From Clostridiaceae bacterium (lineage in GTDB: Bacteria > Bacillota > Clostridia > Christensenellales > CAG-917), in the NCBI GenBank assembly GCA_031289315.1, contig JAITPR010000054.1, positions 1-64,000 on the forward strand: a stretch of 64,000 nt of DNA. The letters are read 5' to 3'. Of the stretch, positions 3,607 to 52,851 are shown piece by piece; positions within the stretch are counted from its first letter, which is position 1, and the number at the start of each line of letters is the position of its first letter. The notes under the pieces are model-generated. The model did not search any database. It was not told the origin of the DNA and saw nothing but the letters and a program-made list of their open reading frames with translations. Made by a program: the position numbers and the translations under genes.

Positions 3607-4902
3607 TTATTTTTTCTTCCGTGCCGCGTGCCGTTTTCGTATTTCCGCCTCAAAGCCGTATTCGGAGGGCGTGTAGTAGACGTCGTTTTTTGCACCGTCC
3701 GGCAGATATTGCTGCTCCACCCAACCGCCGGGAAAATCGTGCGGATATTTGTATCCGGAAATTTTTTCTCCCTTGTAGTTTGGGTCTTGCAAGGCTTTGG
3801 GTACGTTTTCCCGCTTGACGCGCTGTACCGCCTGATTAGCCGCGTTAAGCGCAACGCATACCGAATTTGATTTGGGCGCCTCCGCGACATAAATTATCGC
3901 CTCCGTAAGCGGCAATCTGCCCTCCGGAAGCCCTATCCGCTCGAACGCCGTAACCGCGCTTGCCGCAACGACCAACGCGTTCGGGTCCGCCATGCCCACG
4001 TCCTCCGCGGCGTGTATCATCACTCGGCGGCAGATTAACAACGGGTCGCAACCGGCGGAAAGCAGCCTTTCCGACCAGTAAACCGCCGCGTTCGAATCGC
4101 TGCCGCGCATGCTCTTGATGAACGCGGAAATCATGTCGTAATACATGCTCTCGTCGACGGAAAGCGCCTTTCGCTGTATAGACTCACCGGCAATTTGTTC
4201 GGTTATCACTATGCGCCCGTCCGCTCCCGGTACCGTCGTCAAGGCGGCAAGCTCCAAGGCGTTGTATGCGGTGCGAAGGTCGCCGTCCGACGCCCACGCC
4301 AAAAGATTGAGCGCGGAGTCCTCCGCCGCTACGTCCATGTTCCCCAGCCCGTGCGTCTTGTCCGCTATCGCGCGCTTTAAGCCTATGCGGATGTCGTCCT
4401 CCGAAAGCCGCTTGAATTCGAATACGCGGCAACGGGAAATAATTGCCTTAGTCATGGAAACGTACGGGTTTTCCGTGGTGGAGCCGATGAACACGATTGT
4501 GCCCTGCTCTATCGCCGCAAGCACGGAATCGGACTGCGCCTTGCTCCAACGGTGGCACTCGTCCAAAAGCAAATAGGTGCGCTTGCCGTACATGCGTAAA
4601 CGTTCGCGCGCCTCATCAATAACGCGTTTTGCGTCCGCTACGCCCGATACGACGGCGTTCAATTTCTCAAAAGCCGCGTTCGTACTCTGCGCTATTATGT
4701 TGGCAAGCGTAGTCTTCCCCGTCCCTGGAGGACCGTAAAAAATGCAATTTCCAAGCTTGTCGGCGCCTATCGCGCGACGTAATAGGGAGCCCTGCCCGAC
4801 AATGTGAGATTGTCCGACAAATTCTTCCATAGTTTTTGCACGCATTCTTTCGGCTAAGGGCGCAAGCTTGTCGCTGAACCCCGCCGCATCAAATAAATCC
4901 AT
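3607..4902 (-). CDS. rarA: Replication-associated recombination AAA+ ATPase RarA (MgsA)
   Basis: A 431-residue AAA+ ATPase of normal RarA length. After the opening LAERMRAKTMEEFVGQSHIVG it has Walker A (GPPGTGKTT), Walker B as LLLDECH, sensor 1 in STTENPY and the sensor 2 arginine region SDGDLRTAYNALE. The C-terminal tetramerisation region ends with the usual PNYKGEKISGYKYPHDFPGGW and QQYLPDG blocks. RarA acts at stalled replication forks with SSB and clamp-loader-like chemistry. It stands alone on the minus strand; the next gene upstream belongs to a compositionally different island. The Shine-Dalgarno is modest (AAGGTG). Confidence 0.95.
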   Translation of the reverse strand: MDLFDAAGFSDKLAPLAERMRAKTMEEFVGQSHIVGQGSLLRRAIGADKLGNCIFYGPPGTGKTTLANIIAQSTNAAFEKLNAVVSGVADAKRVIDEARERLRMYGKRTYLLLDECHRWSKAQSDSVLAAIEQGTIVFIGSTTENPYVSMTKAIISRCRVFEFKRLSEDDIRIGLKRAIADKTHGLGNMDVAAEDSALNLLAWASDGDLRTAYNALELAALTTVPGADGRIVITEQIAGESIQRKALSVDESMYYDMISAFIKSMRGSDSNAAVYWSERLLSAGCDPLLICRRVMIHAAEDVGMADPNALVVAASAVTAFERIGLPEGRLPLTEAIIYVAEAPKSNSVCVALNAANQAVQRVKRENVPKALQDPNYKGEKISGYKYPHDFPGGWVEQQYLPDGAKNDVYYTPSEYGFEAEIRKRHAARKKK

Positions 4903-5046
4903 GAGTATATCATATCACCTTAGCGCCATTTTGACAATAGACTTAATATAAAATATAAGCTTAAATTTAATCGTTAATAATTTGCCGATTATTGGCTTAA
5001 ATAAATGCGATGGCTGCCCTACCATTAAAAAAGAAGCCAATATAAA

Positions 5047-7176
5047 CTAGTTTTTCTTAGATTTATTAGAATAGTATATTTTGCTTGTACGTTTTATTTC
5101 GTCATAACATATGTCCGCATGACTAACGAAAGAACCGTCACCGCTAGGTTTTTTCGGGTCTGAAGCTACCCATACTTCCATTTTATCGTTTATAAGTAAT
5201 CCTATGTCAGCCGGCAAAAACTTAGTTTCGCTATATGTCTTGTTAAAAATATCTGCAATCTCTATTCGGCAATTATTATTGAATTCTTCGCCAAATTCTG
5301 ATATAATGCAAATTTGTGGCTTCAATGTTTCAACAAGCTTCGCAACGCCCAATCTACCTAGATGATTTTTATAATAAATCTTTTCCATTGGATCATCCTT
5401 TTGGTCATTTCTTTGGTCATCCATAAAACTAGCATTATAGTTTATTTCCGATTCTTTAAACCCTCCTATATTTGCCACAAGTGCTATGGTTTTATCTTTA
5501 TAATGCTCTTCCAATAAGTTGGCATAGTATTTCTTCATTTCTTTGGAAAATCCTGTATCGCCCGTATATATAAGGACAGAACTGCCATATTCAAAGCAAA
5601 AACCTAAACAAGCTGCATCAGACATTAAATCGTTGTGTTTTGCCTTAATTAAGCGTACGTTCATATCATCTATTTTAAACTCTTTGTAAAACTCGTCATC
5701 TACACATACTATTTTATAGTTGCTAGCTTTGTTCAGATTAAAGAAACTTGAATACTTCTTAAATGTTCCGTATGATAAATAAAAAATAATTTCTTTTCTT
5801 CTGTTTTTAAAGCGATTGCCGACTTCTTCACGAACCTTAGAATCACCCTCCGGGTTGTCTTTTCTTGTTTTATTCAAGGTTTTTAAGACTTCATCTATAA
5901 TGCTTCCGTCTTTGTACTCATCGTAAGAGCCGAGCAATTCTTCATTATATACATGTAAAAGTGTTAATAAAGAGTCAAGGTCGGCAGTATGGTCATTGTG
6001 GGCATGCGTTATCATTATGTAATCAATATCTATAAAGTTAAACCCCGCCGCAATGAAATTCTCAATAAAATTAAAACCGGGGTCAATTACAATCCCCTTG
6101 TCTTTATATTTTATAAAGTAACCACCGCCCTTGCTTGCATAGTAACCGCTACCGACAATAGGCGTGAAAGAATTCCATCGGCGTAAAACCATAAATTCAA
6201 AATCGCTTTTATCACTTCTATCACTTTTATCTTTTTTATGACTATAAAAGTCCTTCATTTTTCTTTTATTTGCGACGATCTTACTTCCGCATATTTTTTC
6301 GGTTTCATCTATAATTGTTCGTAGCTTATCTGGATTTTCTATTGCCGCTTTTTGAGCGGCAATTTTTTCTTCGACTTGCTTGATAAGTTCGTCTATCCTA
6401 TCACCTTTATACTTTTCGCTTTTAGCATAATATTTCCGTGCTTTTTCATAATCGGCAAGTGCCTTAGGATATTTCTTTTGAGAGTAATAGACCATTCCGC
6501 GATAACGATATGCCTTGGCATAGGTGTAATCATTTTTAACCGCCGAAGTATAATCAGCTATCGCCTTTTTATAATCGTCTAAAATATAATGAACATAGCC
6601 GCGATTTGTGTATGCACGAAGACTAAGAAGTTCCGTATTGCTATTAATAATTGCTAGCCCATAGTTTTTAATTGCGTTGTCATATTCCTTTCTAAATTCT
6701 CCATAAAATTTATTTTTAGCAGAAGCTTGGTCAACAAAAATAAGTCCACGAAGATTATATGCACGTGCATATTTGGAATTATATTTAATTGCTTCATCGC
6801 ATTCTTTCATAGCTGTATCGTATTCTCTTTTATCATAATGGACAACAGCCTTGCCCAAATATGCTGCGGCGCAAAGTTCATGCGCTTCATCGATTTTGTC
6901 TGATTTTGATTTATCTAATTCGGCAATCTTTTCATCGCAAAGTTTATGAGCTTCATCAATTTTGTCTGATTCCGATTTACCTAATTCCGAAAGCGCGCAT
7001 ATTTTTATGTAAAAACATTCCGGGTGTTTTGGCTCCAATCTCAATCCGTTTTCACAATCTTCGAGTGCTTTGCCGTACTCGTTTTGAGTGTAGTATAGTT
7101 CGGCTCTTTGAGAATACAAATCGGCTGTTGCATCACTCTTAATTTTAGTTGTTAAGTCTTTGATAGTTTTACTCAT
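5047..7176 (-). CDS. TPR repeat - metallo-beta-lactamase fold fusion protein
   Basis: A 709-residue protein. Residues 1-280 are TPR helices (for example AYNLRGLIFVDQA and AYRYRGMVYYSQKKYPKALAD), with a short internal duplication around SDKIDEAH. After a charged linker, residues 335-640 form a metallo-beta-lactamase fold: the metal motif HAHNDH near 388-396, a downstream histidine in KAKHNDLMSD, the bridging aspartate in YTGDTG, and a late histidine in NHLGRLG. There is no signal peptide, so it should be cytoplasmic. The start ATG overlaps the stop of the preceding radical SAM gene (ATGA), which fixes it as the last gene of that operon. It may hydrolyse a peptide or ester bond, or bind metal, in the same pathway; this is inference. 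I do not recognise a named family with this architecture. Confidence 0.8.
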   Translation of the reverse strand: MSKTIKDLTTKIKSDATADLYSQRAELYYTQNEYGKALEDCENGLRLEPKHPECFYIKICALSELGKSESDKIDEAHKLCDEKIAELDKSKSDKIDEAHELCAAAYLGKAVVHYDKREYDTAMKECDEAIKYNSKYARAYNLRGLIFVDQASAKNKFYGEFRKEYDNAIKNYGLAIINSNTELLSLRAYTNRGYVHYILDDYKKAIADYTSAVKNDYTYAKAYRYRGMVYYSQKKYPKALADYEKARKYYAKSEKYKGDRIDELIKQVEEKIAAQKAAIENPDKLRTIIDETEKICGSKIVANKRKMKDFYSHKKDKSDRSDKSDFEFMVLRRWNSFTPIVGSGYYASKGGGYFIKYKDKGIVIDPGFNFIENFIAAGFNFIDIDYIMITHAHNDHTADLDSLLTLLHVYNEELLGSYDEYKDGSIIDEVLKTLNKTRKDNPEGDSKVREEVGNRFKNRRKEIIFYLSYGTFKKYSSFFNLNKASNYKIVCVDDEFYKEFKIDDMNVRLIKAKHNDLMSDAACLGFCFEYGSSVLIYTGDTGFSKEMKKYYANLLEEHYKDKTIALVANIGGFKESEINYNASFMDDQRNDQKDDPMEKIYYKNHLGRLGVAKLVETLKPQICIISEFGEEFNNNCRIEIADIFNKTYSETKFLPADIGLLINDKMEVWVASDPKKPSGDGSFVSHADICYDEIKRTSKIYYSNKSKKN

Positions 7177-8201
7177 ATGCTTTCTTTTTCACCCCAAAAT
7201 AAGCATCCCATCGATATGTCGGAAAAATTGTCGTTGAATATTCTACAACAAAACGGATCCGGCGATAAAAACTCACCATTAAATTTGTAAGCCCGCACTC
7301 GGCACCCGCGGTTGCAAACGATTTTTGAATGACAATTATTACACTCAAAAATATCATTTGACACATAATTCTGAAGAATTTTTGAGTTTTCACTGTTAAC
7401 ATAATCTTGTATCGTTTCATGTAATGAACGAGTTGTTATATTTCCCATACAAAATAGACTATGTTCTCGGGCATCACCGCAAGGATACACATTACCATCA
7501 TATTTTATTGCTAATGTATGTGGAAAAATACGGCAACGGTGGGTTTTATCTGCAAAGGTTGTTTGCTTCTTATAAAGAAGATTTATCGTTTTTTCGTAAT
7601 CTTTAACAACCGCTGAATTATATTCAGTTTGCCGCTTTGCCGCACTTGTTAAAGCCACGGGCAAAATACTGTAGCTAGTAAAGTACGGCATGTTAATAAC
7701 ATCAATAACATCAGTATAATTGTGCTCATCTAATGTCATTTTTGCCGTTATAGGAATGCCTAGTTTTGACAGTCCCTTTACATTGTGGATTGTAGCATCA
7801 AAAGAGCCCTCACCGCGTCGCAAATCATGATTGTATTTCATGCCGTCAATAGAAACTTGTATTGACAAAAGATTTATATCTTTGCGCTTTTCAAAAAATA
7901 ATAGGTTCAAATCCGTCGCATTTGTTAATACCCTAGTAGGAATTTTTTTAGCTAAGCAGTATTCTAATAATCCATATGCGAAAGGGTGCGTAAAAAATTC
8001 GCCACCACTAAATGAAAGCGCTTGCGTATAGTTTGCAATAGCAAAATCAACAATTTCAATTAGTTTTGATTCAGATAGAACATATTTGTTTTTATCGGCA
8101 CCACGAAAACAGTGCGTACAATTTGAGTTGCACGCACTTGTTACCAGTACTTTAATCTGGTCAAAATTAAAATGTTCCGGCATCAATGAAATTGCTGACA
8201 A
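7173..8201 (-). CDS. Radical SAM/SPASM protein A of the peptide locus
   Basis: A 342-residue radical SAM enzyme. The AdoMet [4Fe-4S] motif is CNSNCTHC (C24, C28, C31), the GGE motif is FSGGEFF, and the C-terminal SPASM region has further cysteines in YPCGDAREHSLFC, CNNCHSKIVCNRGC and DPFCC for auxiliary clusters. SPASM enzymes commonly modify ribosomal peptides, making thioether, C-C or other crosslinks. The start is a TTG at 8201 preceded by GGAAGG, and it lies inside the 3' end of the small cysteine-rich peptide gene (35-nt overlap). Its own stop overlaps the TPR-MBL start. That close linkage makes the 68-residue peptide the best substrate candidate, although this is inferred. Confidence 0.88.
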   Translation of the reverse strand: MSAISLMPEHFNFDQIKVLVTSACNSNCTHCFRGADKNKYVLSESKLIEIVDFAIANYTQALSFSGGEFFTHPFAYGLLEYCLAKKIPTRVLTNATDLNLLFFEKRKDINLLSIQVSIDGMKYNHDLRRGEGSFDATIHNVKGLSKLGIPITAKMTLDEHNYTDVIDVINMPYFTSYSILPVALTSAAKRQTEYNSAVVKDYEKTINLLYKKQTTFADKTHRCRIFPHTLAIKYDGNVYPCGDAREHSLFCMGNITTRSLHETIQDYVNSENSKILQNYVSNDIFECNNCHSKIVCNRGCRVRAYKFNGEFLSPDPFCCRIFNDNFSDISMGCLFWGEKESI

Positions 8202-8373
8202 CTATTGATCCTTCCTTTTTGCTACAGCATCCACCTATTGGACTTGGAGCAGAGCAACAGTAGTGTGCGTCGACCTTATCACCAACCTTGTCTAAGGCTG
8301 TTAAAAGTTTTTCCTCGAATAGTACATGCTGTTCTTCAGACCTTTTCAAGTCATTGTTTATCCTATTTTTCAT
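8167..8373 (-). CDS. Small cysteine-rich peptide, candidate RiPP precursor
   Basis: A 68-residue peptide. The N-terminal 35 residues are charged and helix-prone (MKNRINNDLKRSEEQ...), as in leader peptides. The C-terminal half carries YCCSAPSPIGGCCSKK, a CC-X8-CC arrangement, followed by a hydrophobic tail ending in DAGTF. The ATG has an ideal AGGAGG 7 nt upstream and its own perfect sigma-70 promoter, so it is very likely expressed, and more strongly than the flanking genes. It sits between three radical SAM/SPASM genes. I do not recognise the family: the spacing fits neither the six-cysteine SCIFF pattern nor a known sactipeptide I can name. No double-glycine protease site is obvious, although GG precedes the second CC. 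Confidence 0.72.
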   Translation of the reverse strand: MKNRINNDLKRSEEQHVLFEEKLLTALDKVGDKVDAHYCCSAPSPIGGCCSKKEGSIVVSNFIDAGTF

Positions 8374-8394
8374 TATAAAACCTCCTATGTATTT

Positions 8395-8423
8395 ATTATA
8401 GCGGATAATGTTGAATATGTCAA
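8395..8423 (-). promoter_or_regulatory. Consensus sigma-70/SigA promoter of the peptide gene
   Basis: Read on the minus strand: TTGACA (8418-8423), a 17-bp spacer, then TATAAT (8395-8400). Both boxes match the consensus at every position. The predicted transcript starts only a few bases before the AGGAGG of the peptide gene. Confidence 0.9.
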
Positions 8424-8432
8424 ACTCTTTGT

Positions 8433-8499
8433 GTGTGGAAAATTAGAGATGACAAAAGATTTTATTATATAGCAAGTCGTCACCCTAACTGCCCACACC
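8433..8499. repeat. MITE-like palindromic repeat, diverged copy
   Basis: Opens with GTGTGG, holds AGCAAGTCGTCACC, and closes with CCCACACC, giving inverted ends. It is the most diverged of the full-length copies. Its edge lies about 10 bp upstream of the -35 box of the peptide promoter. Confidence 0.7.
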
Positions 8500-8595
8500 A
8501 AACTCTTTAATGCCCTTGAAAATTGCAACTTATCTTGAAATTTCCACACCTCTGCATAACCGTCCACAGCTTGCGACTTGCAAAAAATTATTGCC

Positions 8596-9969
8596 TTACG
8601 TCGTAGTTTTTCCGCTTTTGTCATCTGCTTCTGCATAATGTTCCGTTAGAATTTTAGATATTGCGGCTATTTTAAATATAAATTTGTTACACGGTGAATT
8701 TGTCTCTGAAATGTTCTTTCGTTGTTCAAGGCATCCCCCTTGGCAAATAGGCAAAAATTTGCACGCAAAACACTCTTGCTGCAACTCAATGCTCATAAAG
8801 TCGTTATATACTTCATTTTTTACAACACCTTTTGAAACACTGCCTGTTGCATTTGCTCCGTTTAGTTGACTCAAATTGCACCTATATATCGCCCCGTCTG
8901 CCCCGATGACCAAGGCATCCTTTGATTTAGCTAAACAAAACTTAGTTAATAACTTAGGAACCAAACTATCGACCGGTGGCACAACGCCATTCTTTATCAA
9001 CAACGAGTTAGTAATATAAGTCATTTCGTTATATTCCAATGTCGGAAAATAATCATTGACGTTATCTTCACTTCGTAGAGGTGATACGAAAAAGAAAAAC
9101 AACTCGTTCTCCAAGAAATGCTTGATGTCATGAAGTATTATGCTAAGGTCATTAATATTGTTTTTGTCAACATTAAATCGACAATGAACATTAATGCCTT
9201 TCGCCAACAACTTTTCAATATGTTGAACAGTTCTTTTATAACCGTTAAAAGTTTTATCTAAATATTTTTTTCTACTATTATGCTCTTGTTCCGCGCCGTC
9301 AAATGTGATGTTAATCTTTCTAATATGCCAATTAGTAACGGCTGAATCTAAAATTTCATCGTTAAACAAAACTAAGTTAGTTGTGATAACCGAAGTGTAG
9401 TTAATTTCCGGAACCTTTAGCTTAAATTCTTTACACATCATTGTTATTAACTTGTGCTTTAAAAGAGGTTCTCCGCCGTACCAGTTAAAAGAAACATTCT
9501 TATAGCCATGTGAGGCTTTTGTGATAAATTCTATAGTTTTCTCTGCAGTTGCTAGAGTCATATCAATTCGCTGATTTTTCTGCGCTATACAATAACGACA
9601 TCTCGCATTACATTCGGTCGTCGGCAAAATCACAACTTTCATTGTTTCAGAAGCGGTATTTTGCATAGTCACTCTGTGTCTACTTAAAATTGCTGCCTCG
9701 TCAACGTCTTTTCCTACAAAAAAACCATTTTCTTTAAGCAGAGAATATATTTGACTATCCTCCGAAAACTTCTTATTAACAATTTTTTGGTATTCATTTT
9801 TGCTTAACATCACGATTGCATCTGAAATAAAATTATAAAAAATGACTTTATTCTCAGCAACTTCTTGACAATGTGTAAACCAAGAAAGCTTCGTTTCTTT
9901 TGGTTCAGTAGCGCCAAAATACTCCGGAAATTTTTCCGCTAAATGGCTGTGTTCGCGAATAATTTTCAT
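8596..9969 (-). CDS. Radical SAM/SPASM peptide maturase-like protein B
   Basis: A 457-residue enzyme with an N-terminal domain of about 110 residues before the radical SAM core, the size and place where peptide maturases often carry a peptide-binding domain. The cluster motif is CNARCRYC (C120, C124, C127), the GGE motif is WYGGEPL, and the SPASM region includes FCLAKSKDALVIGADGAIY, a cysteine in YRCNLSQ, and CFACKFLPICQGGC. I place the start at the ATG at 9969 (MKIIREHS), 9 nt after GAGG and 11 nt after the stop of the previous gene; the frame further upstream only overlaps that gene. It ends before the peptide promoter. It resembles SPASM maturases of RiPP clusters; the bond it makes is unknown. 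Confidence 0.85.
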   Translation of the reverse strand: MKIIREHSHLAEKFPEYFGATEPKETKLSWFTHCQEVAENKVIFYNFISDAIVMLSKNEYQKIVNKKFSEDSQIYSLLKENGFFVGKDVDEAAILSRHRVTMQNTASETMKVVILPTTECNARCRYCIAQKNQRIDMTLATAEKTIEFITKASHGYKNVSFNWYGGEPLLKHKLITMMCKEFKLKVPEINYTSVITTNLVLFNDEILDSAVTNWHIRKINITFDGAEQEHNSRKKYLDKTFNGYKRTVQHIEKLLAKGINVHCRFNVDKNNINDLSIILHDIKHFLENELFFFFVSPLRSEDNVNDYFPTLEYNEMTYITNSLLIKNGVVPPVDSLVPKLLTKFCLAKSKDALVIGADGAIYRCNLSQLNGANATGSVSKGVVKNEVYNDFMSIELQQECFACKFLPICQGGCLEQRKNISETNSPCNKFIFKIAAISKILTEHYAEADDKSGKTTT

Positions 9970-9980
9970 GTCTACAAACC

Positions 9981-11036
9981 TCAACCATTGCGACCTGATG
10001 AAATCGGGCATGTGCAATCCTCATGTATACACATTGGGTCATGTGAAAACAAATCTTTAGTTTGTGCCAACGAGGCTACCCTACATCCCAAACAAGACGC
10101 TTGATATTTACACTTTGACTCTTTCATCGTATGTACTTCTTGAAGTTGCCGTATTAGTGCGGAACCTTCAAGAATATTGGCTAAAGAGCGTTCAAACACA
10201 TTTCCAATAATAGTATCTTGATACAATAGCAACGGACAAGGACTTACATTGCCCGATGGGTCAATTCCAATCCATCTCGTGCCAGCCTTGCAAGCATAAC
10301 CATTTATCAATTTTTCTTCATTGCCTGTATTCGGCAGTTTTTGATAGTAATCAAAAACTATAGTGCCATAAAGCGGATCATGAACATTAATTTTTAAGTC
10401 CTTGTTTGCGAGTTGAATTGCGAATATTTTATTTAAGACCTTGAAATTTTCTTCCGGAGTAAGTCCCACATCATTTATGCCGCCGCGACCGATTTTCATC
10501 AATCGCTTAAATGAAAAAGATTTCACACCATACGAACTAGCAACATTGATGAGATTTTCTATTATCTGATAATTCTGCTTCAAAATTGTCATTTCAATGC
10601 CGAGTGAAAAATTGAATTTTTTTACTCTTGTGAGTAAATTCAAAATAATTTCATCAACTTTCGGGTGCCGATATATTTCTATTGATTTTTCGTTGGATAA
10701 CGACTGTAAGCTAATTACAATTCCATCAACGCCCGCCGTTGAGAGCCTTTCCAACATTTCATTGGATAAAAGCGTTCCGTTTGAGCAAAGAAATACTTCG
10801 TCACCTATTTTCTTTGCTATATCCAAATACTTGAAGAATTGTTTATCTAAAAGAGGTTCTCCTCCCGACAAAAATATGCGATTGAACCTAACGCTATTTA
10901 AGCTATTAAACAACGCTTCAAACTCATTGTCACTAAGCGGAACTTTAGATTCAATGCCTGAACTAGGATAACAATGGACGCAACTCAAATTGCATTCATT
11001 GTTTATTATCCACGATAATTTTTTTATAGGTTTCAT
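9981..11036 (-). CDS. Radical SAM/SPASM protein C of the peptide locus
   Basis: A 351-residue protein with CNLSCVHC (C15, C19, C22) almost at the N-terminus, FLSGGEPLLD, and a SPASM tail: CKAGTRWIGIDPSGNVSPC, then CKYQASCLGC and a last group CIHEDCTC. The layout is like PqqE/AlbA-type peptide-modifying enzymes and heme-related radical SAM proteins; the neighbours favour peptide modification. The Shine-Dalgarno (AAGGA) is rather far from the ATG, so expression may rely on coupling with the upstream gene that ends 26 nt before. It is the second gene of the operon. Confidence 0.85.
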   Translation of the reverse strand: MKPIKKLSWIINNECNLSCVHCYPSSGIESKVPLSDNEFEALFNSLNSVRFNRIFLSGGEPLLDKQFFKYLDIAKKIGDEVFLCSNGTLLSNEMLERLSTAGVDGIVISLQSLSNEKSIEIYRHPKVDEIILNLLTRVKKFNFSLGIEMTILKQNYQIIENLINVASSYGVKSFSFKRLMKIGRGGINDVGLTPEENFKVLNKIFAIQLANKDLKINVHDPLYGTIVFDYYQKLPNTGNEEKLINGYACKAGTRWIGIDPSGNVSPCPLLLYQDTIIGNVFERSLANILEGSALIRQLQEVHTMKESKCKYQASCLGCRVASLAQTKDLFSHDPMCIHEDCTCPISSGRNG

Positions 11037-11062
11037 TATTAATTGTTAGTTCCTTATTATAT

Positions 11063-11521
11063 TTATTTCCATTGCTCTATCAATTCACATTCGCGTTCAA
11101 TAGTTTCCCTATCCGCATCTGAAACATGAAAATAAGAATAACGATATGGCATCTTCTCTCCATTATATTCAATTAGAATATCTAATTTTTGAGGCCAACA
11201 GAATTTCCTAAAATCTCTTTTAATTTTGGTCAGTTTTTCGTAGGCTTCTATAAGAGAAATAGGCTCATTATAATCTAAATACCATATCTCAAAAGACTCC
11301 GCATTTTTACCGAAGATTTGGTTGAAAAATGCTCTATATAGTGCAGACACAGTCGTCGATGAGTTCTTGTAAATAGCCACAGAAATGTCTGAAAGACGTG
11401 TCTTTTCCCTTGTACAAACGACAGAAAAACCTCTCTCAGCCAAATAACTTTCCAATACATCACGACAAAATAGCAAAACCTCGGGTTTTACTAATATCCA
11501 ACAAGCATTTTTTGTGATCAT
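11063..11521 (-). CDS. Small NDP-kinase-like protein
   Basis: A 152-residue protein, first gene of the island operon, with a strong AAAGGAAGG before the ATG. I see a distant match to nucleoside diphosphate kinases: the opening CWILVKPEVL resembles the kinase strand with its conserved KP, and FHVSDADRETIEREC near the C-terminus resembles the active-site histidine segment (H-G-S-D-...-E-I). The length also fits an NDP kinase monomer. The middle is too diverged to be sure, and the usual RNxxHGSD asparagine is not seen. It could bind or phosphorylate a nucleotide, or be a fold relative with a new role such as peptide recognition. The match is by eye only. Confidence 0.5.
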   Translation of the reverse strand: MITKNACWILVKPEVLLFCRDVLESYLAERGFSVVCTREKTRLSDISVAIYKNSSTTVSALYRAFFNQIFGKNAESFEIWYLDYNEPISLIEAYEKLTKIKRDFRKFCWPQKLDILIEYNGEKMPYRYSYFHVSDADRETIERECELIEQWK

Positions 11522-11871
11522 TGCAACCTTCCTTTAAGAATGCGATAGTGAGCAGTAGTATCAAATATGGCGATTCGCAATTTTTATGCACAAAGATCAA
11601 TCCATTTAACGCTCAATTGTCTTGTTTATTACACGAGCAATTTCGACAAGAAAACTTAGCTATCATTACGACTCACCATATTACTTTATAATTGTAACAC
11701 ATCTATTGCAAAATTACAAGCAATCGCGAGCTTGAATTCATAACAAAATTACCACTTAAATTTACGGGATTTTAGTGTGTATCGGGAGCGCGCGTTTCGT
11801 ATTGAAAATCCTCTTTAAGTCCAATGCGACTAACCGCTTGCCCCATTCTCCGTTTTAGACTAGCAACGCCT
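11522..11871. other. AT-rich intergenic region with operon promoter
   Basis: About 350 bases between the glucan synthase end and the first gene of the radical SAM operon. It contains one good promoter (11691-11719) for the operon and a long leader of roughly 160 nt. No gene, tRNA or clear riboswitch was seen. Confidence 0.65.
11691..11719 (-). promoter_or_regulatory. Likely promoter of the radical SAM operon
   Basis: On the minus strand: TTGTAA (11714-11719), 17-bp spacer, TACAAT (11691-11696). The boxes are near consensus with ideal spacing. It would drive the NDP-kinase-like gene and the two radical SAM genes behind it. Confidence 0.6.
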
Positions 11872-14800
11872 CTAGCAATGCGCTTCCAGTCGGTACACGC
11901 CGTCGTCGCTTAGCTTGACCGAATCGACGCCTTCGATTTTAAGTCCGTCGAAAAAGAACGCCGGCGTCCCCGTGCGCTTAAGTTTTATAAAATAGACGGC
12001 GTTTTTGCGACGGTACTCAACCTCCGCTTCCGGCAATTCCGGCGGCAATTTTGGCGACAGTAACAGCCGATTTTCCTTTATAGATATGCCAAGCATTTTG
12101 AGTACGGTAGTATAATACCACGCTGCGCTGCCCGTGTACCAGTTCCAACCCATGCGCCCTAAAAACTTCGGATTTGCGTAGACGTCGGCGGCGATTACGT
12201 ACGGCTCTCCTTTGTACGCCGCCGCAAGTCTTTTGTCGCGGCATTTGTCGACGGGGTTTAAAATACGGAGAATTCCGTAGCCCTCAGACGTCTTACCCTC
12301 CTCAAAAAGCGCCGCGGCATACCACACAGCCGCGTGGGTATATTGACCGCCGTTTTCGCGAATACCCTCGTGATAGCGCGAAATATATCCGTAAAACCCG
12401 TTATTGAACGGTTTATCCGTTAGCTTGACAATCCCGTTTTCGCGGTCCACGAGTGAATCGGCGGTAGCAAGCGCGGCAGCGGTTTTATCCTTAGGGCAAG
12501 CCCCGGACAGCGACGCGAACGCTTGCGTGAGCAAATCCAACTCCACATCCGCGCCCTTTTCGCCCAACCATATCCCCTCCTTAGTCTTAAGCCGCTTATA
12601 ACGCCCGTCGGCAAAGGCGCGGTCTACCGCAGCCGCCAAAATCTCCGCGCGGTCGGTAAGCTCGGCAAGGTCGGCGCGGTCGGCATAGGGCAACAGCTTT
12701 TTAAGCGCCGCGATATAAAACATCGTAAGCCAAACACTTTCGCCGCGTTTTTCGTCGCCTACCGCGTCAAGCGCGTCGTTCCAGTCGCCGCCGCCTATGA
12801 GGAGCAAGCCGCTTTCCCCCGTCGCCGCCCTGTCCGCGGCGCGTATTATATGCTCGTACAGCGTACCCTCACCCGCGTATTCCGGCTCCTCGTAACGCGC
12901 ACTCTCTATGCGGTTCAACGGTTCGGATTTCAAATACGGAATTTTTTCCTTCAGTATGCCCCGGTCGCCGCTTGCAGAAATGTATTCCGCCGTCACGTAG
13001 GCTAAAAACAGTCTGTCGTCACTTATCCGCGTACGCACGCCCAGTTTTTCCGGATGCCACCAATGCATTACGTCGCCCTCCGCGTATTGATGACGGGCGC
13101 AATCCAAAATGTGAGCGCGTACGCGCGCGGTATCCTTATACAACAACGCAAGCATGTCCTGAAGCTGGTCGCGAAAGCCTATCGCACCGCCCGTTTGATA
13201 GTAGCCGGCACGCGCGTTTATGCGCGACGACACCGTTTGGCAGAGAAGCCAGCGGTTGAAAAGCGTATCCAAACACTTGTCCGCCGTCTTTATTTTAAAC
13301 GGGTTCAGCGACGTAAAATACGCCTCCGAACGCATTCCTTCGCGCTTTATTTCCTCCTCGTCCGCGCTTACCGCCGCAAGGTCGCCGCCCAAAAGGAAGT
13401 ACACAGCGTCCTTAGCGCCGCTTACGCAAGCCGCCGCCGACGGCATGTAAAAGGAGCCTCCGCATTTGGAAAGCCCGCCGCCCGCACGCGACATAAATTC
13501 GTTGCCGTTAAGAACGTATTCCGTCTTTGCCCCGCCTAGTGCGCGCAGGTACAGCCGCACTCCCGTGCGAAGGTTGGTAGCCGTCATTACGCCGTCGGAA
13601 ACCGCGTAAATTACGTAGTCGCCGCCGTCCGCCACGCCCAATTCCGTTTTAAGGTTCAACAAAATCACGCCGTCTGCAGGCGGCTTAGAAAACCGCAGTT
13701 CCATGACCTTTGCCGCGCCGTCGCGTATTATATACTCCGATAGCACACCCTTAACGCGGTCGAAATCAAAATAAAAATCCGTGCGCCCCGGTCTGTGTAC
13801 GGCGTTGCCGCCGTTGAGCCTCACATACTCCCCGCCGCCTATCCAAAAAAGCTCCTCGGACGGCTCGTCTAATACCGGGTCGAAGCCGTGCGCCGTAAGT
13901 CTGCCCGTCTGCGAATTGTTAAAATATGTGAAGCCGCCTCCGTTTGCGGTGATAACCGTGCCGCCTACCCTCCCCGCTATGACGTTGGAATACGGGAGTC
14001 TTGTGCGCGCGCCCTCCGGTACCGCCGCATACGCTCCGTCGCTTAGAAAACCGCCCTCTCCGCACGGCATGGCTAGGGACGGCTTATGCGGGACGGACTT
14101 GCCCTCCCTTAAGCGCCCGTCGCCGACGGCATATTCGGCTATAACCAATCCGTTTAACTCCTCGTCCGCTACGGCATAGGCGAAACGCTCTAGATTTTCC
14201 TCCGTAAGCCTTACGTGGTCGCCTATTATTCCGTATTTGAGCAATGCGCCGATTTCCGACTTTACCGGCTTAAAATAACCGTCTGAATCCTCGTATCCGA
14301 TAATCAGCGTAACCGGAATTTCTAAGTCATACAAGGTTTTCAGCATCACGGAAAGCTCGCTTACAAGCTTTGAACCGCGTGTATATTTGTGATATATAAT
14401 CTTTCTTTTGAAGCCGTCCGTAAGCTCCGCGAATAGCTTTTTATCGTCGTCACCCATCGCGGAAAGCTTGTCGGACGGATAAGGAATATACAGCAATTTA
14501 GGAAGCAAATTACAAAGATATTTCCGTACCGGCGCGGACAGCATGTCCTTCCCCTTTATCAAAAACGGTTTCTCGGTAAGGTAATCCTCCGCCCTTTGGT
14601 ACTTCAATCGCTTTAGATTACGCGCCAACTCGTCCGCGTCCGCGGCAAATATTATGCTTACGTCGAACGTGAGCGCGCCCTCCTTAGGCACCTCCGCGTC
14701 GGCGGCAAAGCCGGCTATAGGATAAAGACAATCGCCGTACACGCCCGCGGTTATCTCCCCGAACATCACCGCGGGACGCTTGCCGTCGCCGTCCCCGTAA

Positions 14801-17800
14801 AACATATCTCTGTCGGTAACCGGAGAAATTTCTTGTAAACCGTCAATCTTTACCGCCAGCAAAACCCTGTCCTCCGAATTTTGCATCCGCTTTTCGAATA
14901 CGATTAAGCCGCCGCCGTCATAGCGCGACGTGACGAACATATCGCCAAAGTTAGGGTGCGCTAAATCGCTGCCGCGGTCACTTAAGGAAATCGGCATTGC
15001 AAATGCTAGGCGCAGCTTTCGCGGAGTCGCGCCGTCGTTTTCTATCCTGAAACGACGTATCTCACCGCACATAAAATCCGGTGTGTAAACCTCCTCCGAA
15101 ACGCCGCGCGTCTTGTTTTCGTAGCGGCTTTTGTTTTGCGTGAAACTCACCGCAAATTCGTCGTCGTTGTAAAGCGGCGCAAAGGACGGCGAAAAAAGTT
15201 CTCCGTCAAAATCGCGCTTCCGCCCCTCCTTAAAGCGGCTTCCGTCGGTATCTCTCAAATACAAGAACGCGCCGTACGGCTTCAACATATCCCGACGGAA
15301 TCGGTTTATGTCGCGTCCGCCCGATACTGAAAAGCCCTGCCCGTAATCGTCCGTTATCGTTAGGTAGCGGTTGCCGGCAAGCAGGTTGAAACGCGGAAAA
15401 AGTAACCGTCCGGATATTTCCTCTGGAGCCGTTTCCGCGGGCGGCGGCAGGTACACAAACGGCGCTTTCGGCTTGCGCTCTCCCTTCGCCTCCGTCATTT
15501 TTTCGGCAAGCAATATTTCCGTACCGGCTATCGCCGCGTCCTTTAACATCAGCCTTCTTATAAGTCCGCCGTCGACATAGTTAGCCGCCGCGCACAAAAT
15601 CATTCCTTGGTGGTGCGCCATAAAGGAGGTTACCGTGCCTCCCCCCGCCGTATAGTCGACCGCCTCATAAAATCCGTATCTGCCGTATACGCCACGCGCC
15701 TTTAATTTTTTTAAGTTTCTCATGGCGGCGGAAGGGTTGTGCTCTAAGGAAATAAATGTGCTGTACGGCGAAATTACACACGAGTTTACGTCGGACTTCA
15801 AGGCAATTTCATTAAGTCCGAAGGCTTGATATTGAAACACCGTTTGCGCGTCGAATTCGTAACGCCCGCTCTCCGAAATGCCGTAAAGTCCCTTGCATTT
15901 GCGGCGTATCGCGTAGCGAGCGGCATGTCTTACGCTTGCGCCGATAAGCGACTTAGACGGCGCTGCAAGGAACAGCTCCGGCATAAAATATTCGAAAGCG
16001 GTACCGTTCCACGAGTAAAGCGTGTTGCCGTAAAGCGGCGTGTGTTCTCTGGACAGTCCGTTCCAGTGTTCCACCGGAATTCCGCGCGAAATACCCGTTA
16101 TGCTTAGCAACCGCGCCTCCCCCGCAAGTAGGTCGTAATGCCCTCCGTAGCCTTTGCCGGGCGTGTAGCCGATATAAAACAGACCGCGCTTGAAATCGTA
16201 AAGTGCTTTGAAATCAATTGCGGCAAGCATTTTTTCTATGCGGGCGGCAAGCTCCTTGTTGGTATCCTCCACGTAGCCCTTTGCTACAATAAGCGCGGCG
16301 GCGAAATTGCCGCTATCTACGCTTGACACAAAGTGCGGCGGAAGCTTTTCGCGCGTGTCCGTATCGTACCAATTGTACAGATGCCCGTTCCATTTCTCCA
16401 ACGTATCAACCGCGTCAAGTATTTTAACTATGCCGGACTCCGCACGCGCGGCATCTATAAGCCCCAGCCTTTCGGCGGAGATTTCCGCAAGCAGCGAATA
16501 GCCTATGTTGGTGGGAGAGGTGAGCGGACGCCGTCCCACGTCAAACGCCTCCTGAAAATTGTCGGCTATTATGCCGTTGTTTTGCTCGTTTTCGAAATAT
16601 TCGTAGGTGCGACGCGCGTATTCCTTAAGCTTACGCACGCGTTCCTCATGTGCCTTAACGCTAGCCCTGCCGCGCGGCTTGCGCATACCGTTCCCGGCGG
16701 CGTAAAGGATACACGCGGCGGTAAGCTCGGCAATAAGCGCGGCGGAAAAAATATAAACACTCAAGTACGGTACGCCCGCGTAAACGCCGTTCACTGCAAG
16801 CAGATAAGCGGCTACGGCAAGCGCGCTCAACAATACCGCGGAGGGCGCAAGCATTCTAACCGTCGCGCCGCCGCAATTTCTACTCATGTAAAACGTACGC
16901 CAGTTCAAAAGATTTTTGCCGCGCGCCATTTTCAAAAGCGTTCCGAAAAATAACGCCGCGCCGTTTACCGCCCTTAACGGCAATAAAGCCGTCTCCTCCG
17001 TCAAATTTAAAAGCTCGTGACAAACCTCCTTAAGCACATAAATTTTTCTTCGGGTTCCCCCGTTTAAAATCACCGCCGCGACACGTACGGCAAACGGATA
17101 TAACAACAGCGCGCCGCCGCTTACGGCAAGCGGAACGTCTGCAAAAACCGCCGCAAGCGTAAGCATTAAAAAGATTGCCAACGCTCTCAATGGTTTAAGC
17201 GCGTTATTTACTATGATAAAGGCGTAAATATGCGGAAGCTTTACGCGTGAAGCGCCGTCGGCACGGTTAAAAGACAGGAGCGGCAACAATTGTATATCCC
17301 CTCTTGTCCACCGCGCGCCGCGTTCCTCGTCGCAGGAAAAGCCGTCCGGCGCGGTTTCGTATACCGCAACTCCGGACGCGCCCGTATTTAAAAGCGCCCC
17401 CTCTATTATGTCGTGACTTAGGACGCAACCCTCCGGCAATACGCCGCCTAGCTTGCCGTAAAACGTGTCAAGCCTATATATGCCCTTGCCGGTAAATACG
17501 CCCCCGCCGGTTAGCGCAAAATAAAAATCCGTGTTTTCACGGTAAGCGTCGCGCCCGGCAAGCTTTAAAAATCTATATGAATACGCCGTCCTTATACTAC
17601 GTAGGTCCGTGAGATTTCTAAACGACATCAGGTCGAAGCCGTTGACCGGATGCGTCATTTCCGCAACCGCCGCGAGCACTCCGCCCGGTTCCAACACGCT
17701 GTCGTCGTCCAAAAGCACGACAAACTCCGGACGGTCGGGGATAACCGTGCAGTCGAAAGCGGAAAAATCTCCCGTCACCGCCGCCTTGTTTATATCCTCT

Positions 17801-19716
17801 ATCGCGCCGCGCTTTCTTTCGCGCGCGCTAAACTTTACCGATGTCGCGGATGTTTCCGCCAAGCGGCAGGCGTTTTCACGTCGTTTTTTTGCGCGGGATG
17901 AGGATTTTCGCCCGTAACCCGCCGCGTCGGAACAAACGCAAGGCTTTCGCAACAACCCTATTATCCGCTTATTTAAGGCTCCGTTTTTCGTCAAAAGTTC
18001 GCCTATCGCGGCGTAAATTTCCCTATAAAAGGCGCTTTGCTCCTCGTCCTGCGGTGGAATGTCAATGAGGAGCGCAAAGGTTACGTTGCCGTCGTCGTTG
18101 ACGGCTTGCATTATTTTGACACGGCGTACCGCATCCAGTAGCTGTTCCTTTGACGACACGTATTCCGAAACCAAAACCAATGTCCTTGCCTCATCGGGCA
18201 CGGATAAAAGGCTTTTGCAAAATACCGGACGCTTTTTTAAAAAGGCGCCCATGATTTTTATAACCGTCTCCAATGCGGCGGGAAACAGCGCTAGCACGGA
18301 CGCGACGGACGCACATCCAGCTATAATTCCGCGTGCAAGCGTAAACGCACCCGTTCCTTGAGAAAATAATCCGCCCGCCGCTCCTAACCGCCGCACATAG
18401 GGTGAAAGCACAGCCCCGGACGCCGCAAAAGCTTCTCCGGAAAAATACCATGCGCCGTACGCTAAGTAGGCAACCGCTCCCGCGCACACGGCGATAACTG
18501 CGGCGAACGCCCAAAAAAATACCGTTCTATACGCGCGCTCCCGCTTGCCCTCCTCCGACGGAATTACAACGCCACTTTGCGCGTAACGCTTTATGACGTC
18601 CGGGTACTTAAAAAGTATCACGCCCGGGTTCTTCTTTATCCTTTCGGCAAGCGCCAACAGCCTTTCCGCAAACGTCGTTTCCCGCAGGTTAATCTCGTCG
18701 GACAGCTTTGCAATTTGCTTTAAGTAAATATGACGGGTACGCAAATCCGACGTCGCGTAGGTGTCGTCGCCCAACATTATTTTATGCGGCTTGAAAAACC
18801 CGAATAGCCCGGCGGTGCATTCGTCAAGCGTATGCAGACTGCCGGCGGCGCGCGCGGCTAAGATGTTATTTTCGACAATTAGTGCGGAAAATGCATAATC
18901 TAACCCGTCGTAATCCTTTTCCTTGCGGAGGTATCGCGACAGCTTGAGCGACAGCTCCGGACGTTTTTTCAGTACGTAATAGACGTACACGTCGGAGGTC
19001 ATAAGCCGCTTTATTAAATTTTTACCGCGAAGCGCCGCAAAATGCATGCGGTTGTTGTGAATTACCCGCCTTGACACATAGGCGATTTTCTTTAAAAGCA
19101 CGTAGGAGAGAGCGTCGGCGAAATATGCCGTTTCGTTGTAATAAAGCGGCGCGGAGAGGTTCTGTGTTTTAACCGCCGTTTCCACGCGGTCGCGCAAAAG
19201 CTCACCGCCGGAATAATTTATCACTAGCTCCGCAAGCTTTACGATACGCGGAATGCCGTCCGTATGCGGAAGACCGGAAAAGCAATCATAAGACGTTTTA
19301 TTTAAATGTCGCAAAATTAAACGGTGATTTTCATAAAGCCATTTTTCGCAATCGAAAAGTAAGTCGCCTCTTTTTACCTTACGCGCAATCATGCGGTAGG
19401 CTTTTTTAATCACTCCTTTAAAGCTTATAGATACGCCGGCGCCGCTACGGTTGGGCAAAATATTACGGCTTACCGCCGCGTCCAGCTCCTTTAAAAACTC
19501 CTCATCAGAAACGCGACAAGTCAAGTCGCCGTATAAAACGCCGCGCTCGTTCTTAAAAATTATATAAAACAACGCCGCCGCGGCAATAAACAATATTATA
19601 TAAACCATAGTTACACTAACGCTTCCCCTTTTGATATGTACCGCCCCGCTTTGGAGCTTTCGCCGGTTATCTTGCCGCCGCCGATTAACGGTCTCCCTTT
19701 TGGCATGTACGCGCAA
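11872..19716 (-). CDS. Cyclic beta-glucan synthase (GT84-GH94, NdvB/ChvB-like)
   Basis: A 2614-residue multidomain membrane enzyme. The first membrane helix is at about 37-55, further helices lie at 400-490 and 860-1010, and the glycosyltransferase between them has FVVLLDDDSVLEPGG. A glycoamylase-like domain begins near TSPTNIGYSLLAEISAERLG, and the C-terminal half is a GH94 phosphorylase-like domain with DVMHWWHPE and the catalytic-region motif GGGDWNDALD. In NdvB-type enzymes the GT84 part makes a linear beta-1,2-glucan from UDP-glucose and the GH94 part trims its length. The frame opens with a TTG, but the ATG at 19608, just before the first helix, is an equal candidate; neither has an ideal ribosome site. 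It stands alone, flanked by repeat-rich gaps. Confidence 0.88.
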   Translation of the reverse strand: MRVHAKRETVNRRRQDNRRKLQSGAVHIKRGSVSVTMVYIILFIAAAALFYIIFKNERGVLYGDLTCRVSDEEFLKELDAAVSRNILPNRSGAGVSISFKGVIKKAYRMIARKVKRGDLLFDCEKWLYENHRLILRHLNKTSYDCFSGLPHTDGIPRIVKLAELVINYSGGELLRDRVETAVKTQNLSAPLYYNETAYFADALSYVLLKKIAYVSRRVIHNNRMHFAALRGKNLIKRLMTSDVYVYYVLKKRPELSLKLSRYLRKEKDYDGLDYAFSALIVENNILAARAAGSLHTLDECTAGLFGFFKPHKIMLGDDTYATSDLRTRHIYLKQIAKLSDEINLRETTFAERLLALAERIKKNPGVILFKYPDVIKRYAQSGVVIPSEEGKRERAYRTVFFWAFAAVIAVCAGAVAYLAYGAWYFSGEAFAASGAVLSPYVRRLGAAGGLFSQGTGAFTLARGIIAGCASVASVLALFPAALETVIKIMGAFLKKRPVFCKSLLSVPDEARTLVLVSEYVSSKEQLLDAVRRVKIMQAVNDDGNVTFALLIDIPPQDEEQSAFYREIYAAIGELLTKNGALNKRIIGLLRKPCVCSDAAGYGRKSSSRAKKRRENACRLAETSATSVKFSARERKRGAIEDINKAAVTGDFSAFDCTVIPDRPEFVVLLDDDSVLEPGGVLAAVAEMTHPVNGFDLMSFRNLTDLRSIRTAYSYRFLKLAGRDAYRENTDFYFALTGGGVFTGKGIYRLDTFYGKLGGVLPEGCVLSHDIIEGALLNTGASGVAVYETAPDGFSCDEERGARWTRGDIQLLPLLSFNRADGASRVKLPHIYAFIIVNNALKPLRALAIFLMLTLAAVFADVPLAVSGGALLLYPFAVRVAAVILNGGTRRKIYVLKEVCHELLNLTEETALLPLRAVNGAALFFGTLLKMARGKNLLNWRTFYMSRNCGGATVRMLAPSAVLLSALAVAAYLLAVNGVYAGVPYLSVYIFSAALIAELTAACILYAAGNGMRKPRGRASVKAHEERVRKLKEYARRTYEYFENEQNNGIIADNFQEAFDVGRRPLTSPTNIGYSLLAEISAERLGLIDAARAESGIVKILDAVDTLEKWNGHLYNWYDTDTREKLPPHFVSSVDSGNFAAALIVAKGYVEDTNKELAARIEKMLAAIDFKALYDFKRGLFYIGYTPGKGYGGHYDLLAGEARLLSITGISRGIPVEHWNGLSREHTPLYGNTLYSWNGTAFEYFMPELFLAAPSKSLIGASVRHAARYAIRRKCKGLYGISESGRYEFDAQTVFQYQAFGLNEIALKSDVNSCVISPYSTFISLEHNPSAAMRNLKKLKARGVYGRYGFYEAVDYTAGGGTVTSFMAHHQGMILCAAANYVDGGLIRRLMLKDAAIAGTEILLAEKMTEAKGERKPKAPFVYLPPPAETAPEEISGRLLFPRFNLLAGNRYLTITDDYGQGFSVSGGRDINRFRRDMLKPYGAFLYLRDTDGSRFKEGRKRDFDGELFSPSFAPLYNDDEFAVSFTQNKSRYENKTRGVSEEVYTPDFMCGEIRRFRIENDGATPRKLRLAFAMPISLSDRGSDLAHPNFGDMFVTSRYDGGGLIVFEKRMQNSEDRVLLAVKIDGLQEISPVTDRDMFYGDGDGKRPAVMFGEITAGVYGDCLYPIAGFAADAEVPKEGALTFDVSIIFAADADELARNLKRLKYQRAEDYLTEKPFLIKGKDMLSAPVRKYLCNLLPKLLYIPYPSDKLSAMGDDDKKLFAELTDGFKRKIIYHKYTRGSKLVSELSVMLKTLYDLEIPVTLIIGYEDSDGYFKPVKSEIGALLKYGIIGDHVRLTEENLERFAYAVADEELNGLVIAEYAVGDGRLREGKSVPHKPSLAMPCGEGGFLSDGAYAAVPEGARTRLPYSNVIAGRVGGTVITANGGGFTYFNNSQTGRLTAHGFDPVLDEPSEELFWIGGGEYVRLNGGNAVHRPGRTDFYFDFDRVKGVLSEYIIRDGAAKVMELRFSKPPADGVILLNLKTELGVADGGDYVIYAVSDGVMTATNLRTGVRLYLRALGGAKTEYVLNGNEFMSRAGGGLSKCGGSFYMPSAAACVSGAKDAVYFLLGGDLAAVSADEEEIKREGMRSEAYFTSLNPFKIKTADKCLDTLFNRWLLCQTVSSRINARAGYYQTGGAIGFRDQLQDMLALLYKDTARVRAHILDCARHQYAEGDVMHWWHPEKLGVRTRISDDRLFLAYVTAEYISASGDRGILKEKIPYLKSEPLNRIESARYEEPEYAGEGTLYEHIIRAADRAATGESGLLLIGGGDWNDALDAVGDEKRGESVWLTMFYIAALKKLLPYADRADLAELTDRAEILAAAVDRAFADGRYKRLKTKEGIWLGEKGADVELDLLTQAFASLSGACPKDKTAAALATADSLVDRENGIVKLTDKPFNNGFYGYISRYHEGIRENGGQYTHAAVWYAAALFEEGKTSEGYGILRILNPVDKCRDKRLAAAYKGEPYVIAADVYANPKFLGRMGWNWYTGSAAWYYTTVLKMLGISIKENRLLLSPKLPPELPEAEVEYRRKNAVYFIKLKRTGTPAFFFDGLKIEGVDSVKLSDDGVYRLEAHC

Positions 19717-46606: not shown

Positions 46607-46639
46607 TTTAAGCCTCCTTTTTAATGGTTGAATTCTTGC

Positions 46640-47983: not shown

Positions 47984-48004
47984 TTTACTTGCCCTCCATT
48001 CCTG

Positions 48005-51670: not shown

Positions 51671-51776
51671 CTCTTTACCCTCCCGAAGATTATTTTGACT
51701 TTGACATCCTATCGTCTTTCCTTGACAGAACATCGCGAGCTACGGCTCAAACACCTTCCGATCGAGTGTTTGAAAT

Positions 51777-51800
51777 CTATAGATTCATTTTAGACTTCAT
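51777..51800 (-). pseudogene. Broken copy of the PHP gene start
   Basis: GGAGGCTCAAA, then an ATG and the codons MKSKMNL before a stop. The intact short PHP gene at 46606 has GGAGGCTTAAA and MKSKVNF. Over 23 bases there are only three differences, so this looks like the leftover 5' end of the same or a sister gene. Confidence 0.45.
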
Positions 51801-51817
51801 TTTGAGCCTCCGTTTTA

Positions 51818-51887: not shown

Positions 51888-51903
51888 GTATTGATTACGG
51901 TTT

Positions 51904-52812: not shown

Positions 52813-52851
52813 ACCGTCCTCCTACAACATAGTTATAATGATTATGTTGTC

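What the first reader, a model, noticed from the sequence alone, without database searches (positions are those of the whole stretch)
5047..11521. AT-rich island with three radical SAM/SPASM enzymes around a cysteine-rich peptide
Six genes in one direction: NDP-kinase-like, radical SAM C, radical SAM B, peptide, radical SAM A, TPR-MBL, with overlaps or short gaps except for a second promoter before the peptide. SPASM enzymes are known to modify ribosomal peptides. Three in one cluster around one CC-X8-CC peptide, with an MBL and an NDP-kinase-like partner, does not match any RiPP class I can name. The island is visibly more AT-rich than rarA and the glucan synthase beside it, which suggests transfer.
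Basis: partly seen in the sequence, partly recalled or inferred. Interest (0 to 1): 0.86.

Follow-up and report, generated by a model that had tools for sequence, protein, structure and literature searches.

The report
Orphan three-radical-SAM peptide-modification gene cluster
A gut-type bacterium carries a foreign-looking block of genes that probably makes a small four-cysteine peptide and cross-links it with up to three radical enzymes; the parts are of known kinds, but this combination had no relative in any database searched.

Summary
Six same-direction genes (5047-11521, minus strand) form one AT-rich block: coding GC 0.34-0.39, GC3 0.29-0.36, against flanking genes of 0.49-0.56 and 0.61-0.66. 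All three radical SAM proteins keep CX3CX2C and SPASM-type cysteines. The 68-aa CC-X8-CC peptide has the region's only perfect 12/12 sigma-70-type promoter and an AGGAGG ribosome site, and overlaps radical SAM A. Best reading: a laterally acquired RiPP cluster. Radical SAM B carries an N-terminal leader-binding-like domain and is matched best by the thioether maturase CteB; distant relatives of B sit next to cysteine-rich small ORFs more often than control genes (27% against 6%). NDP-kinase identity is not supported by any profile. The TPR-MBL gene has a relative (43% over the MBL domain) that stands alone in its own AT-rich patch without radical SAM neighbours, so it may be a passenger. No orthologous cluster was found, so conservation of the peptide frame could not be tested, and what each enzyme does to the peptide is inferred. 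Several radical SAM enzymes on one precursor is unusual but not without precedent. New variant of a known kind.

The parts
11063..11521 (-).
   Evidence: ORF; no Pfam or NCBIfam family at a meaningful E-value; PF00334 does not match the genome; profile of genuine NDKs gives -0.9 bits, below 152 of 500 shuffles. Only the short colinear motifs 'LVKP' and 'FHVSDADRETIEREC' resemble NDK.
9981..11036 (-). radical SAM C, 351 aa, rSAM + SPASM, no leader-binding domain
   Evidence: Pfam Radical_SAM 2.5e-22, SPASM 1.1e-9; best NCBIfam TIGR04055 NirJ2 at 154 bits, cut-off 500
8596..9969 (-). radical SAM B, 457 aa: N-terminal RRE-like domain (about residues 25-90), rSAM domain, SPASM-type C-terminus
   Evidence: Pfam; best NCBIfam TIGR04334 Clo7bot maturase 134 bits, cut-off 600; model pLDDT 87; CteB best by Foldseek and VIA-align, Z 24-25
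8395..8423 (-). perfect sigma-70-type promoter TTGACA-N17-TATAAT upstream of the peptide
   Evidence: 12/12, the only such site in 4850-12000
8167..8373 (-). 68-aa candidate RiPP precursor with CC-X8-CC
   Evidence: AGGAGG 7 nt upstream of ATG; codon log-odds 0.155 per codon in frame, -0.02 and -0.13 in the other two sense frames; no homolog found
8111..8138 (-). 11-bp hairpin with a short T-rich tail just after the peptide stop, inside radical SAM A; possible partial terminator or coincidence
   Evidence: z = -3.1 for 8095-8175
7173..8201 (-). radical SAM A, 342 aa, rSAM + SPASM; TTG start overlaps the peptide gene by 35 nt
   Evidence: Pfam Radical_SAM 1.9e-17, SPASM 1.3e-6; best PDB relative by sequence SkfB 1.7e-14
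5047..7176 (-). 709-aa TPR repeats + metallo-beta-lactamase-fold domain (HxHxDH and the later H, D and H all present)
   Evidence: Pfam; homologs in G753 and G613 as orphan genes

Best explanation
The island is a laterally acquired biosynthetic cluster for a ribosomally made, post-translationally modified peptide (RiPP). The 68-residue precursor is transcribed strongly from its own promoter. Its charged N-terminal half acts as leader and is bound by the RRE-like domain of radical SAM B. The CC-SAPSPIGG-CC region is the core, in which cysteine sulfurs are joined to backbone or side-chain carbons (thioether links of sactipeptide or ranthipeptide type). Radical SAM A, whose start overlaps the precursor gene, and radical SAM C add further links or another radical modification, alone or in complex with B. 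Shown: gene content, composition break, promoter sequence, domain architecture, CteB-like model of B. Inferred: that the peptide is the substrate, the type of link, the division of labour, and lateral origin. Unassigned: the 152-aa protein and the TPR-MBL. No exporter or leader protease lies in the island, so export, if any, uses genes elsewhere or the product acts inside the cell.
For: B's closest profiles are Cys-peptide maturases (Clo7bot, TIGR04463, geopeptide, PapB, CefB). B's model (pLDDT 87, pTM 0.88) is best matched by CteB, the SCIFF thioether maturase, with the alignment starting at model residue 17-29, so that CteB's N-terminal peptide-binding domain is included. Distant B relatives, mostly in gut and rumen genomes, have a ribosome-site-led Cys-rich small ORF within 700 bp in 13 of 49 cases against 9 of 159 control genes (Fisher p = 1.6e-4). 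The peptide has the only perfect promoter in 7 kb plus AGGAGG, and overlaps A. GC and GC3 are uniform across the island genes and differ from both flanks. Thuricin CD and ruminococcin C show two rSAM enzymes serving one Cys-peptide cluster (PMC12093266, PMC8188230).
Against: No ortholog of the peptide, A, C or the 152-aa protein was found next to a B relative, so the peptide frame has no comparative support, and an ORF of that length is only moderately unlikely by chance. C scores best against heme-pathway NirJ2/AhbD profiles, though far below their cut-offs. TPR-MBL relatives occur without rSAM genes. No transporter, peptidase or immunity gene lies in the island.
Confidence: 0.72

Rival explanations
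1. Two adjacent units that travel together: an rSAM RiPP core (peptide with A and/or B) plus unrelated AT-rich passengers, the TPR-MBL and perhaps the 152-aa protein and C. Only one or two of the rSAM enzymes act on the peptide. This is a narrower form of the best explanation and overlaps with it.
For: TPR-MBL homologs in G753 (43% over the MBL domain, GC 0.34 in a roughly 0.5 GC neighbourhood) and G613 stand alone. The peptide promoter splits the block into 152-aa/C/B and peptide/A/MBL. Only B has an RRE-like domain.
Against: Junctions are tight or overlapping (A/MBL overlap by 4 nt, peptide/A by 35 nt, B follows C by 11 nt) and composition is uniform, which suggests co-transcription and shared history.
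Confidence: 0.35
2. A peptide-derived cofactor or redox-carrier pathway, working like PQQ or mycofactocin: the peptide is only a scaffold, rSAM enzymes cross-link or decarboxylate it, and the MBL-fold protein (as PqqB in PQQ synthesis) processes it further.
For: Combination of SPASM rSAM enzymes, a small peptide and an MBL-fold protein; no transporter in the island; C matches the mycofactocin maturase profile at 105 bits, cut-off 265.
Against: No PqqE or mycofactocin profile above cut-off; four cysteines point to thioether chemistry; MBL homologs are orphans; no enzyme using such a cofactor lies in the island.
Confidence: 0.1
3. The rSAM enzymes act on a non-peptide substrate (for example a tetrapyrrole or a nucleotide) and the peptide is a chance ORF or a small regulator.
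For: C is nearest to NirJ2/AhbD profiles and all three show weak viperin-profile matches over the rSAM core; no comparative support for the peptide.
Against: Curated cut-offs are missed by a wide margin (154 of 500 bits). B's RRE-like domain and CteB-like fold and the perfect promoter placed exactly at the peptide argue for a peptide substrate.
Confidence: 0.12

Closest known systems
SCIFF/ranthipeptide systems (CteB, PapB)
   Same: RRE + rSAM + SPASM maturase next to a Cys-rich peptide; CteB is the best structural match to B
   Different: Those systems have one maturase (own knowledge); here there are three rSAM genes, and the peptide has paired Cys (CC-X8-CC) with no detected relation to any known peptide family
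Clo7bot / CefB / TIGR04463 / geopeptide maturase families
   Same: Best sequence profiles for B (107-134 bits); relatives of B in gut and rumen genomes often sit next to Cys-rich ORFs
   Different: B is far below all curated cut-offs (400-600 bits) and only 21-27% identical to the 49 homologs aligned here
Sactipeptides with two rSAM enzymes (thuricin CD, ruminococcin C)
   Same: More than one rSAM enzyme serves a small Cys peptide in one cluster (PMC12093266, PMC8188230)
   Different: Two, not three, rSAM genes; those clusters lack the 152-aa protein and the TPR-MBL (own knowledge)
PQQ and mycofactocin pathways
   Same: Peptide + SPASM rSAM, and in PQQ an MBL-fold protein (own knowledge)
   Different: No family profile above cut-off; the MBL here is fused to TPRs and nearest to RNase Z-type profiles

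Membership tests
RiPP biosynthetic cluster with rSAM-SPASM maturase | rSAM CX3CX2C motif and auxiliary-cluster cysteines intact | tested here: met
   B cysteines 120, 124, 127 and 345, 364, 400, 403, 409, 413, 427 invariant in 50 sequences; motifs also present in A and C by inspection
RiPP biosynthetic cluster with rSAM-SPASM maturase | leader-binding (RRE) domain in a maturase or as a separate protein | tested here: met
   B residues about 25-90 form beta strands followed by two helices; alignment to CteB begins at model residue 17-29 and chain residue 1. The domain was not folded and searched alone.
RiPP biosynthetic cluster with rSAM-SPASM maturase | precursor peptide gene conserved next to the maturase in related clusters | tested here: inconclusive
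   No related cluster found; only the general property that B relatives neighbour Cys-rich ORFs
RiPP biosynthetic cluster with rSAM-SPASM maturase | modified peptide product | not testable with these tools
   needs mass spectrometry
Ranthipeptide or sactipeptide (thioether type) | sulfur-to-carbon thioether links | not testable with these tools
   inferred from Cys content and CteB-like fold only
Clo7bot / CefB / TIGR04463 / PapB maturases (radical SAM B) | score above the curated NCBIfam cut-off | tested here: not met
   134 of 600, 107 of 600, 129 of 525, 109 of 340 bits
NirJ2 / AhbD heme enzymes (radical SAM C) | score above the curated NCBIfam cut-off | tested here: not met
   154 of 500 and 131 of 500 bits
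Nucleoside diphosphate kinase (152-aa protein) | NDK profile PF00334 | tested here: not met
Nucleoside diphosphate kinase (152-aa protein) | NDK fold | tested here: inconclusive
   predicted structure too poor to judge (pLDDT 45)
Prokaryotic viperin (pVip), for radical SAM C | score above the curated NCBIfam viperin cut-off | tested here: not met
   70 of 180 bits; PADLOC match covers only the rSAM core
PQQ / mycofactocin pathway | PqqE or MftC profile above cut-off | tested here: not met
   C scores 81 of 381 (PqqE) and 105 of 265 (mycofactocin maturase) bits

The most novel reading that the evidence does not exclude
All six genes form one pathway: three SPASM-type radical SAM enzymes act in sequence or as a complex on one CC-X8-CC precursor, with a new 152-aa partner and a TPR-scaffolded MBL hydrolase finishing or releasing the product, giving a RiPP class or peptide-derived cofactor with chemistry not yet described.
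Probability: 0.2. Interest if true: 0.75.

Novelty: new variant of a known kind. Interest (0 to 1): 0.5.

Why it matters
If the cluster makes one product, it would be a rare case of three auxiliary-cluster radical SAM enzymes converging on a single small precursor. That makes division of labour and enzyme complexes in radical peptide chemistry directly testable, and the peptide is short enough to synthesise. It also shows that the gut and rumen radical SAM peptide repertoire holds lineages below every curated family cut-off. If the MBL is only a passenger, the TPR-MBL family itself, found as an orphan gene (AT-rich in one case) in other Firmicutes-type genomes, is an uncharacterised and possibly mobile family.

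Tried and rejected
NDP kinase: rejected as a family assignment; two short colinear motifs remain as a weak hint. Structure of the 152-aa protein: model too poor to use. Close relatives: the peptide in 200 related genomes gave only chance-level hits; A and the 152-aa protein in 398 phylum genomes each, B in 391 class genomes, C in 115 related genomes, MBL in 388 phylum genomes; single-protein scans of viral and genome collections; plasmid and phage searches. The hit for the 152-aa protein in G795 lies in a stretch of housekeeping genes without rSAM neighbours and is taken as chance. Anti-phage defence: only generic viperin-core matches. Insertion signature: no useful direct or inverted repeat at the edges, only one shared 10-mer. 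Double-glycine leader: 'GG' precedes the second CC, and the genome has one C39-peptidase ABC exporter on another contig, but that gene has its own small ORF nearby, so a link is not claimed.
Full report
WHAT IS THERE. The block lies between rarA (3607-4902) and a very large glucan-synthase-type gene (11872-19716), all on the minus strand. In transcription order it encodes a 152-aa protein, radical SAM C, radical SAM B, a 68-aa peptide, radical SAM A and a 709-aa TPR-MBL protein. Inside, coding GC is 0.34-0.39 and GC3 0.29-0.36, including the peptide; the adjacent genes have GC 0.49-0.56 and GC3 0.61-0.66. In 200-bp windows GC drops to about 0.3 at 4.9 kb and rises back at 11.8 kb, so the composition step coincides with the gene block.

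TRANSFER. The own genome has 2.18 Mb in 63 contigs and no other member of its genus appeared among the relatives searched. In 115 related genomes radical SAM C has no match better than 29% identity, and the peptide has only chance-level matches in 200. In two genomes of the same family (G007, G027) rarA (about 70% identical) is directly preceded by a gene that matches the N-terminal part of the window's glucan-synthase-type protein (22-26% identity), without any island between them. That is an approximate empty site; orthology of that neighbour is not proven, and other family members have different genes upstream of rarA. No repeat marks the edges. Lateral gain is therefore likely but inferred.

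THE PEPTIDE. An ATG ORF this long arises by chance in about 4% of shuffles of the 430-nt stretch, so length alone proves nothing. The support is local. A perfect TTGACA-N17-TATAAT, the only 12-of-12 site found in 7 kb, ends 21 nt before the ATG, with AGGAGG between. The in-frame codon score is above the other two sense frames and within the range of the island genes (0.155 per codon; island genes 0.14-0.32), but one frame of the intergenic stretch scores similarly (0.174), so this test is weak. The end of the gene overlaps the start of radical SAM A, whose TTG is preceded by GGAAGGA. An 11-bp hairpin follows just after the stop, inside A (z = -3.1 for the stretch); it could reduce read-through into A, but it also encodes part of A's cluster-motif region, so its role is open.

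Its best profiles are peptide maturases (Clo7bot 134 bits, TIGR04463 129, geopeptide 117, PapB 109, CefB 107), all far below cut-off. A model built on 50 aligned sequences has pLDDT 87 and pTM 0.88. Foldseek and VIA-align both rank CteB first; in VIA-align anSME is tied with it (Z 24-25), followed by ChlB, TigE and SuiB. For CteB 378-396 residues align and the range starts at model residue 17-29, so B's N-terminal strand-and-helix unit overlays CteB's peptide-recognition domain, which anSME lacks; the N-terminal domain was not searched alone. Around 49 of B's relatives a Cys-rich small ORF with a ribosome site occurs in 13; around 159 control genes in the same loci it occurs in 9 (Fisher p = 1.6e-4). 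B thus belongs to a peptide-maturase lineage.

RADICAL SAM A AND C. Both have rSAM and SPASM domains and no room for an N-terminal leader-binding domain. A's nearest solved relative by sequence is SkfB (E 1.7e-14). C is nearest to NirJ2 and AhbD profiles but at 154 and 131 of 500 bits. Neither can be assigned a reaction. Thuricin CD shows that two such enzymes can work as one complex in which only one strictly needs its own radical activity (PMC12093266), and ruminococcin C also requires two (PMC8188230). Three rSAM enzymes on one precursor is known for polytheonamide-type clusters (own knowledge: PoyB, PoyC and PoyD, of other rSAM subtypes), so the count alone is not unheard of; three SPASM-type enzymes is what stands out. 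A full-text search for this combination of parts found no paper, within an open-licence library only.

THE TWO ACCESSORY GENES. The 152-aa protein was called NDP-kinase-like. Pfam and NCBIfam do not find this, PF00334 does not match the genome, and a profile of genuine NDKs scores it at -0.9 bits, below 152 of 500 shuffles. The start 'WILVKPEVL' and the end 'FHVSDADRETIEREC' do resemble NDK motifs in the right order, so a very divergent member is not excluded. The TPR-MBL keeps the metal-ligand motifs expected of an MBL hydrolase (by inspection). Its best relative, in G753, is 37% identical overall (43% over the MBL domain), and a second is in G613 (23%). Both are single genes among unrelated neighbours, and the G753 gene is itself AT-rich (0.34) in a roughly 0.5 GC region.

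MECHANISM. Shown: gene content, composition break, promoter sequence, intact catalytic motifs, CteB-like architecture of B. Inferred from family knowledge: leader binding by B, hydrogen abstraction by the 5'-deoxyadenosyl radical, thioether formation from the four cysteines, with A and C making further links. Unknown: order of action, maturation and export, biological role. The island has no transporter, protease or immunity gene, so the product may act inside the cell or as a signal; for the widespread SCIFF peptides a review argues against an antimicrobial role (PMC8326336).

VERDICT. A real, coherent and probably foreign radical SAM peptide cluster with no detected ortholog: a new variant of a known kind. 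The strongest claim not excluded, a single six-gene pathway with new chemistry, I put at 0.2.

Noticed in passing
window 46127-53700, minus strand: A second radical SAM neighbourhood in the same window: rSAM protein 46640-47983 (best core match PapB, 78 bits), a 1242-aa fusion with GlnD-UR-like, rSAM and GT4 glycosyltransferase parts (48005-51733), a TPR protein, and PHP-like proteins on both sides; GC about 0.39-0.45.
   Followed up: partly
L201:8777-11119 (G753) and L202:8923-11346 (G613): TPR-MBL proteins as orphan genes in other genomes of the phylum; the G753 copy is AT-rich and next to a GNAT gene. An uncharacterised, possibly mobile family.
   Followed up: partly
L199 (G000 contig 8, 5.8 kb): C39-peptidase ABC exporter (95-2530) with accessory genes and an ORF with a double-glycine-like stretch 'YVEGGGTLKL' (5379-5801, minus): a likely separate bacteriocin-type export operon in the same genome.
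   Followed up: no
window 8111-8138, minus strand: Strong hairpin that also encodes part of radical SAM A's CX3CX2C motif region.
   Followed up: partly
L081:11250-11477: 75-aa peptide with a repeated C-S-C-D-x-Q unit beside the best B relative in a rumen Bacteroidia genome.
   Followed up: no
L086:3135-3251 and L087:11343-11456: Similar short peptides ending 'ACEPH.MCPKCL' directly after B relatives in two different rumen Firmicutes: a likely conserved precursor family.
   Followed up: no
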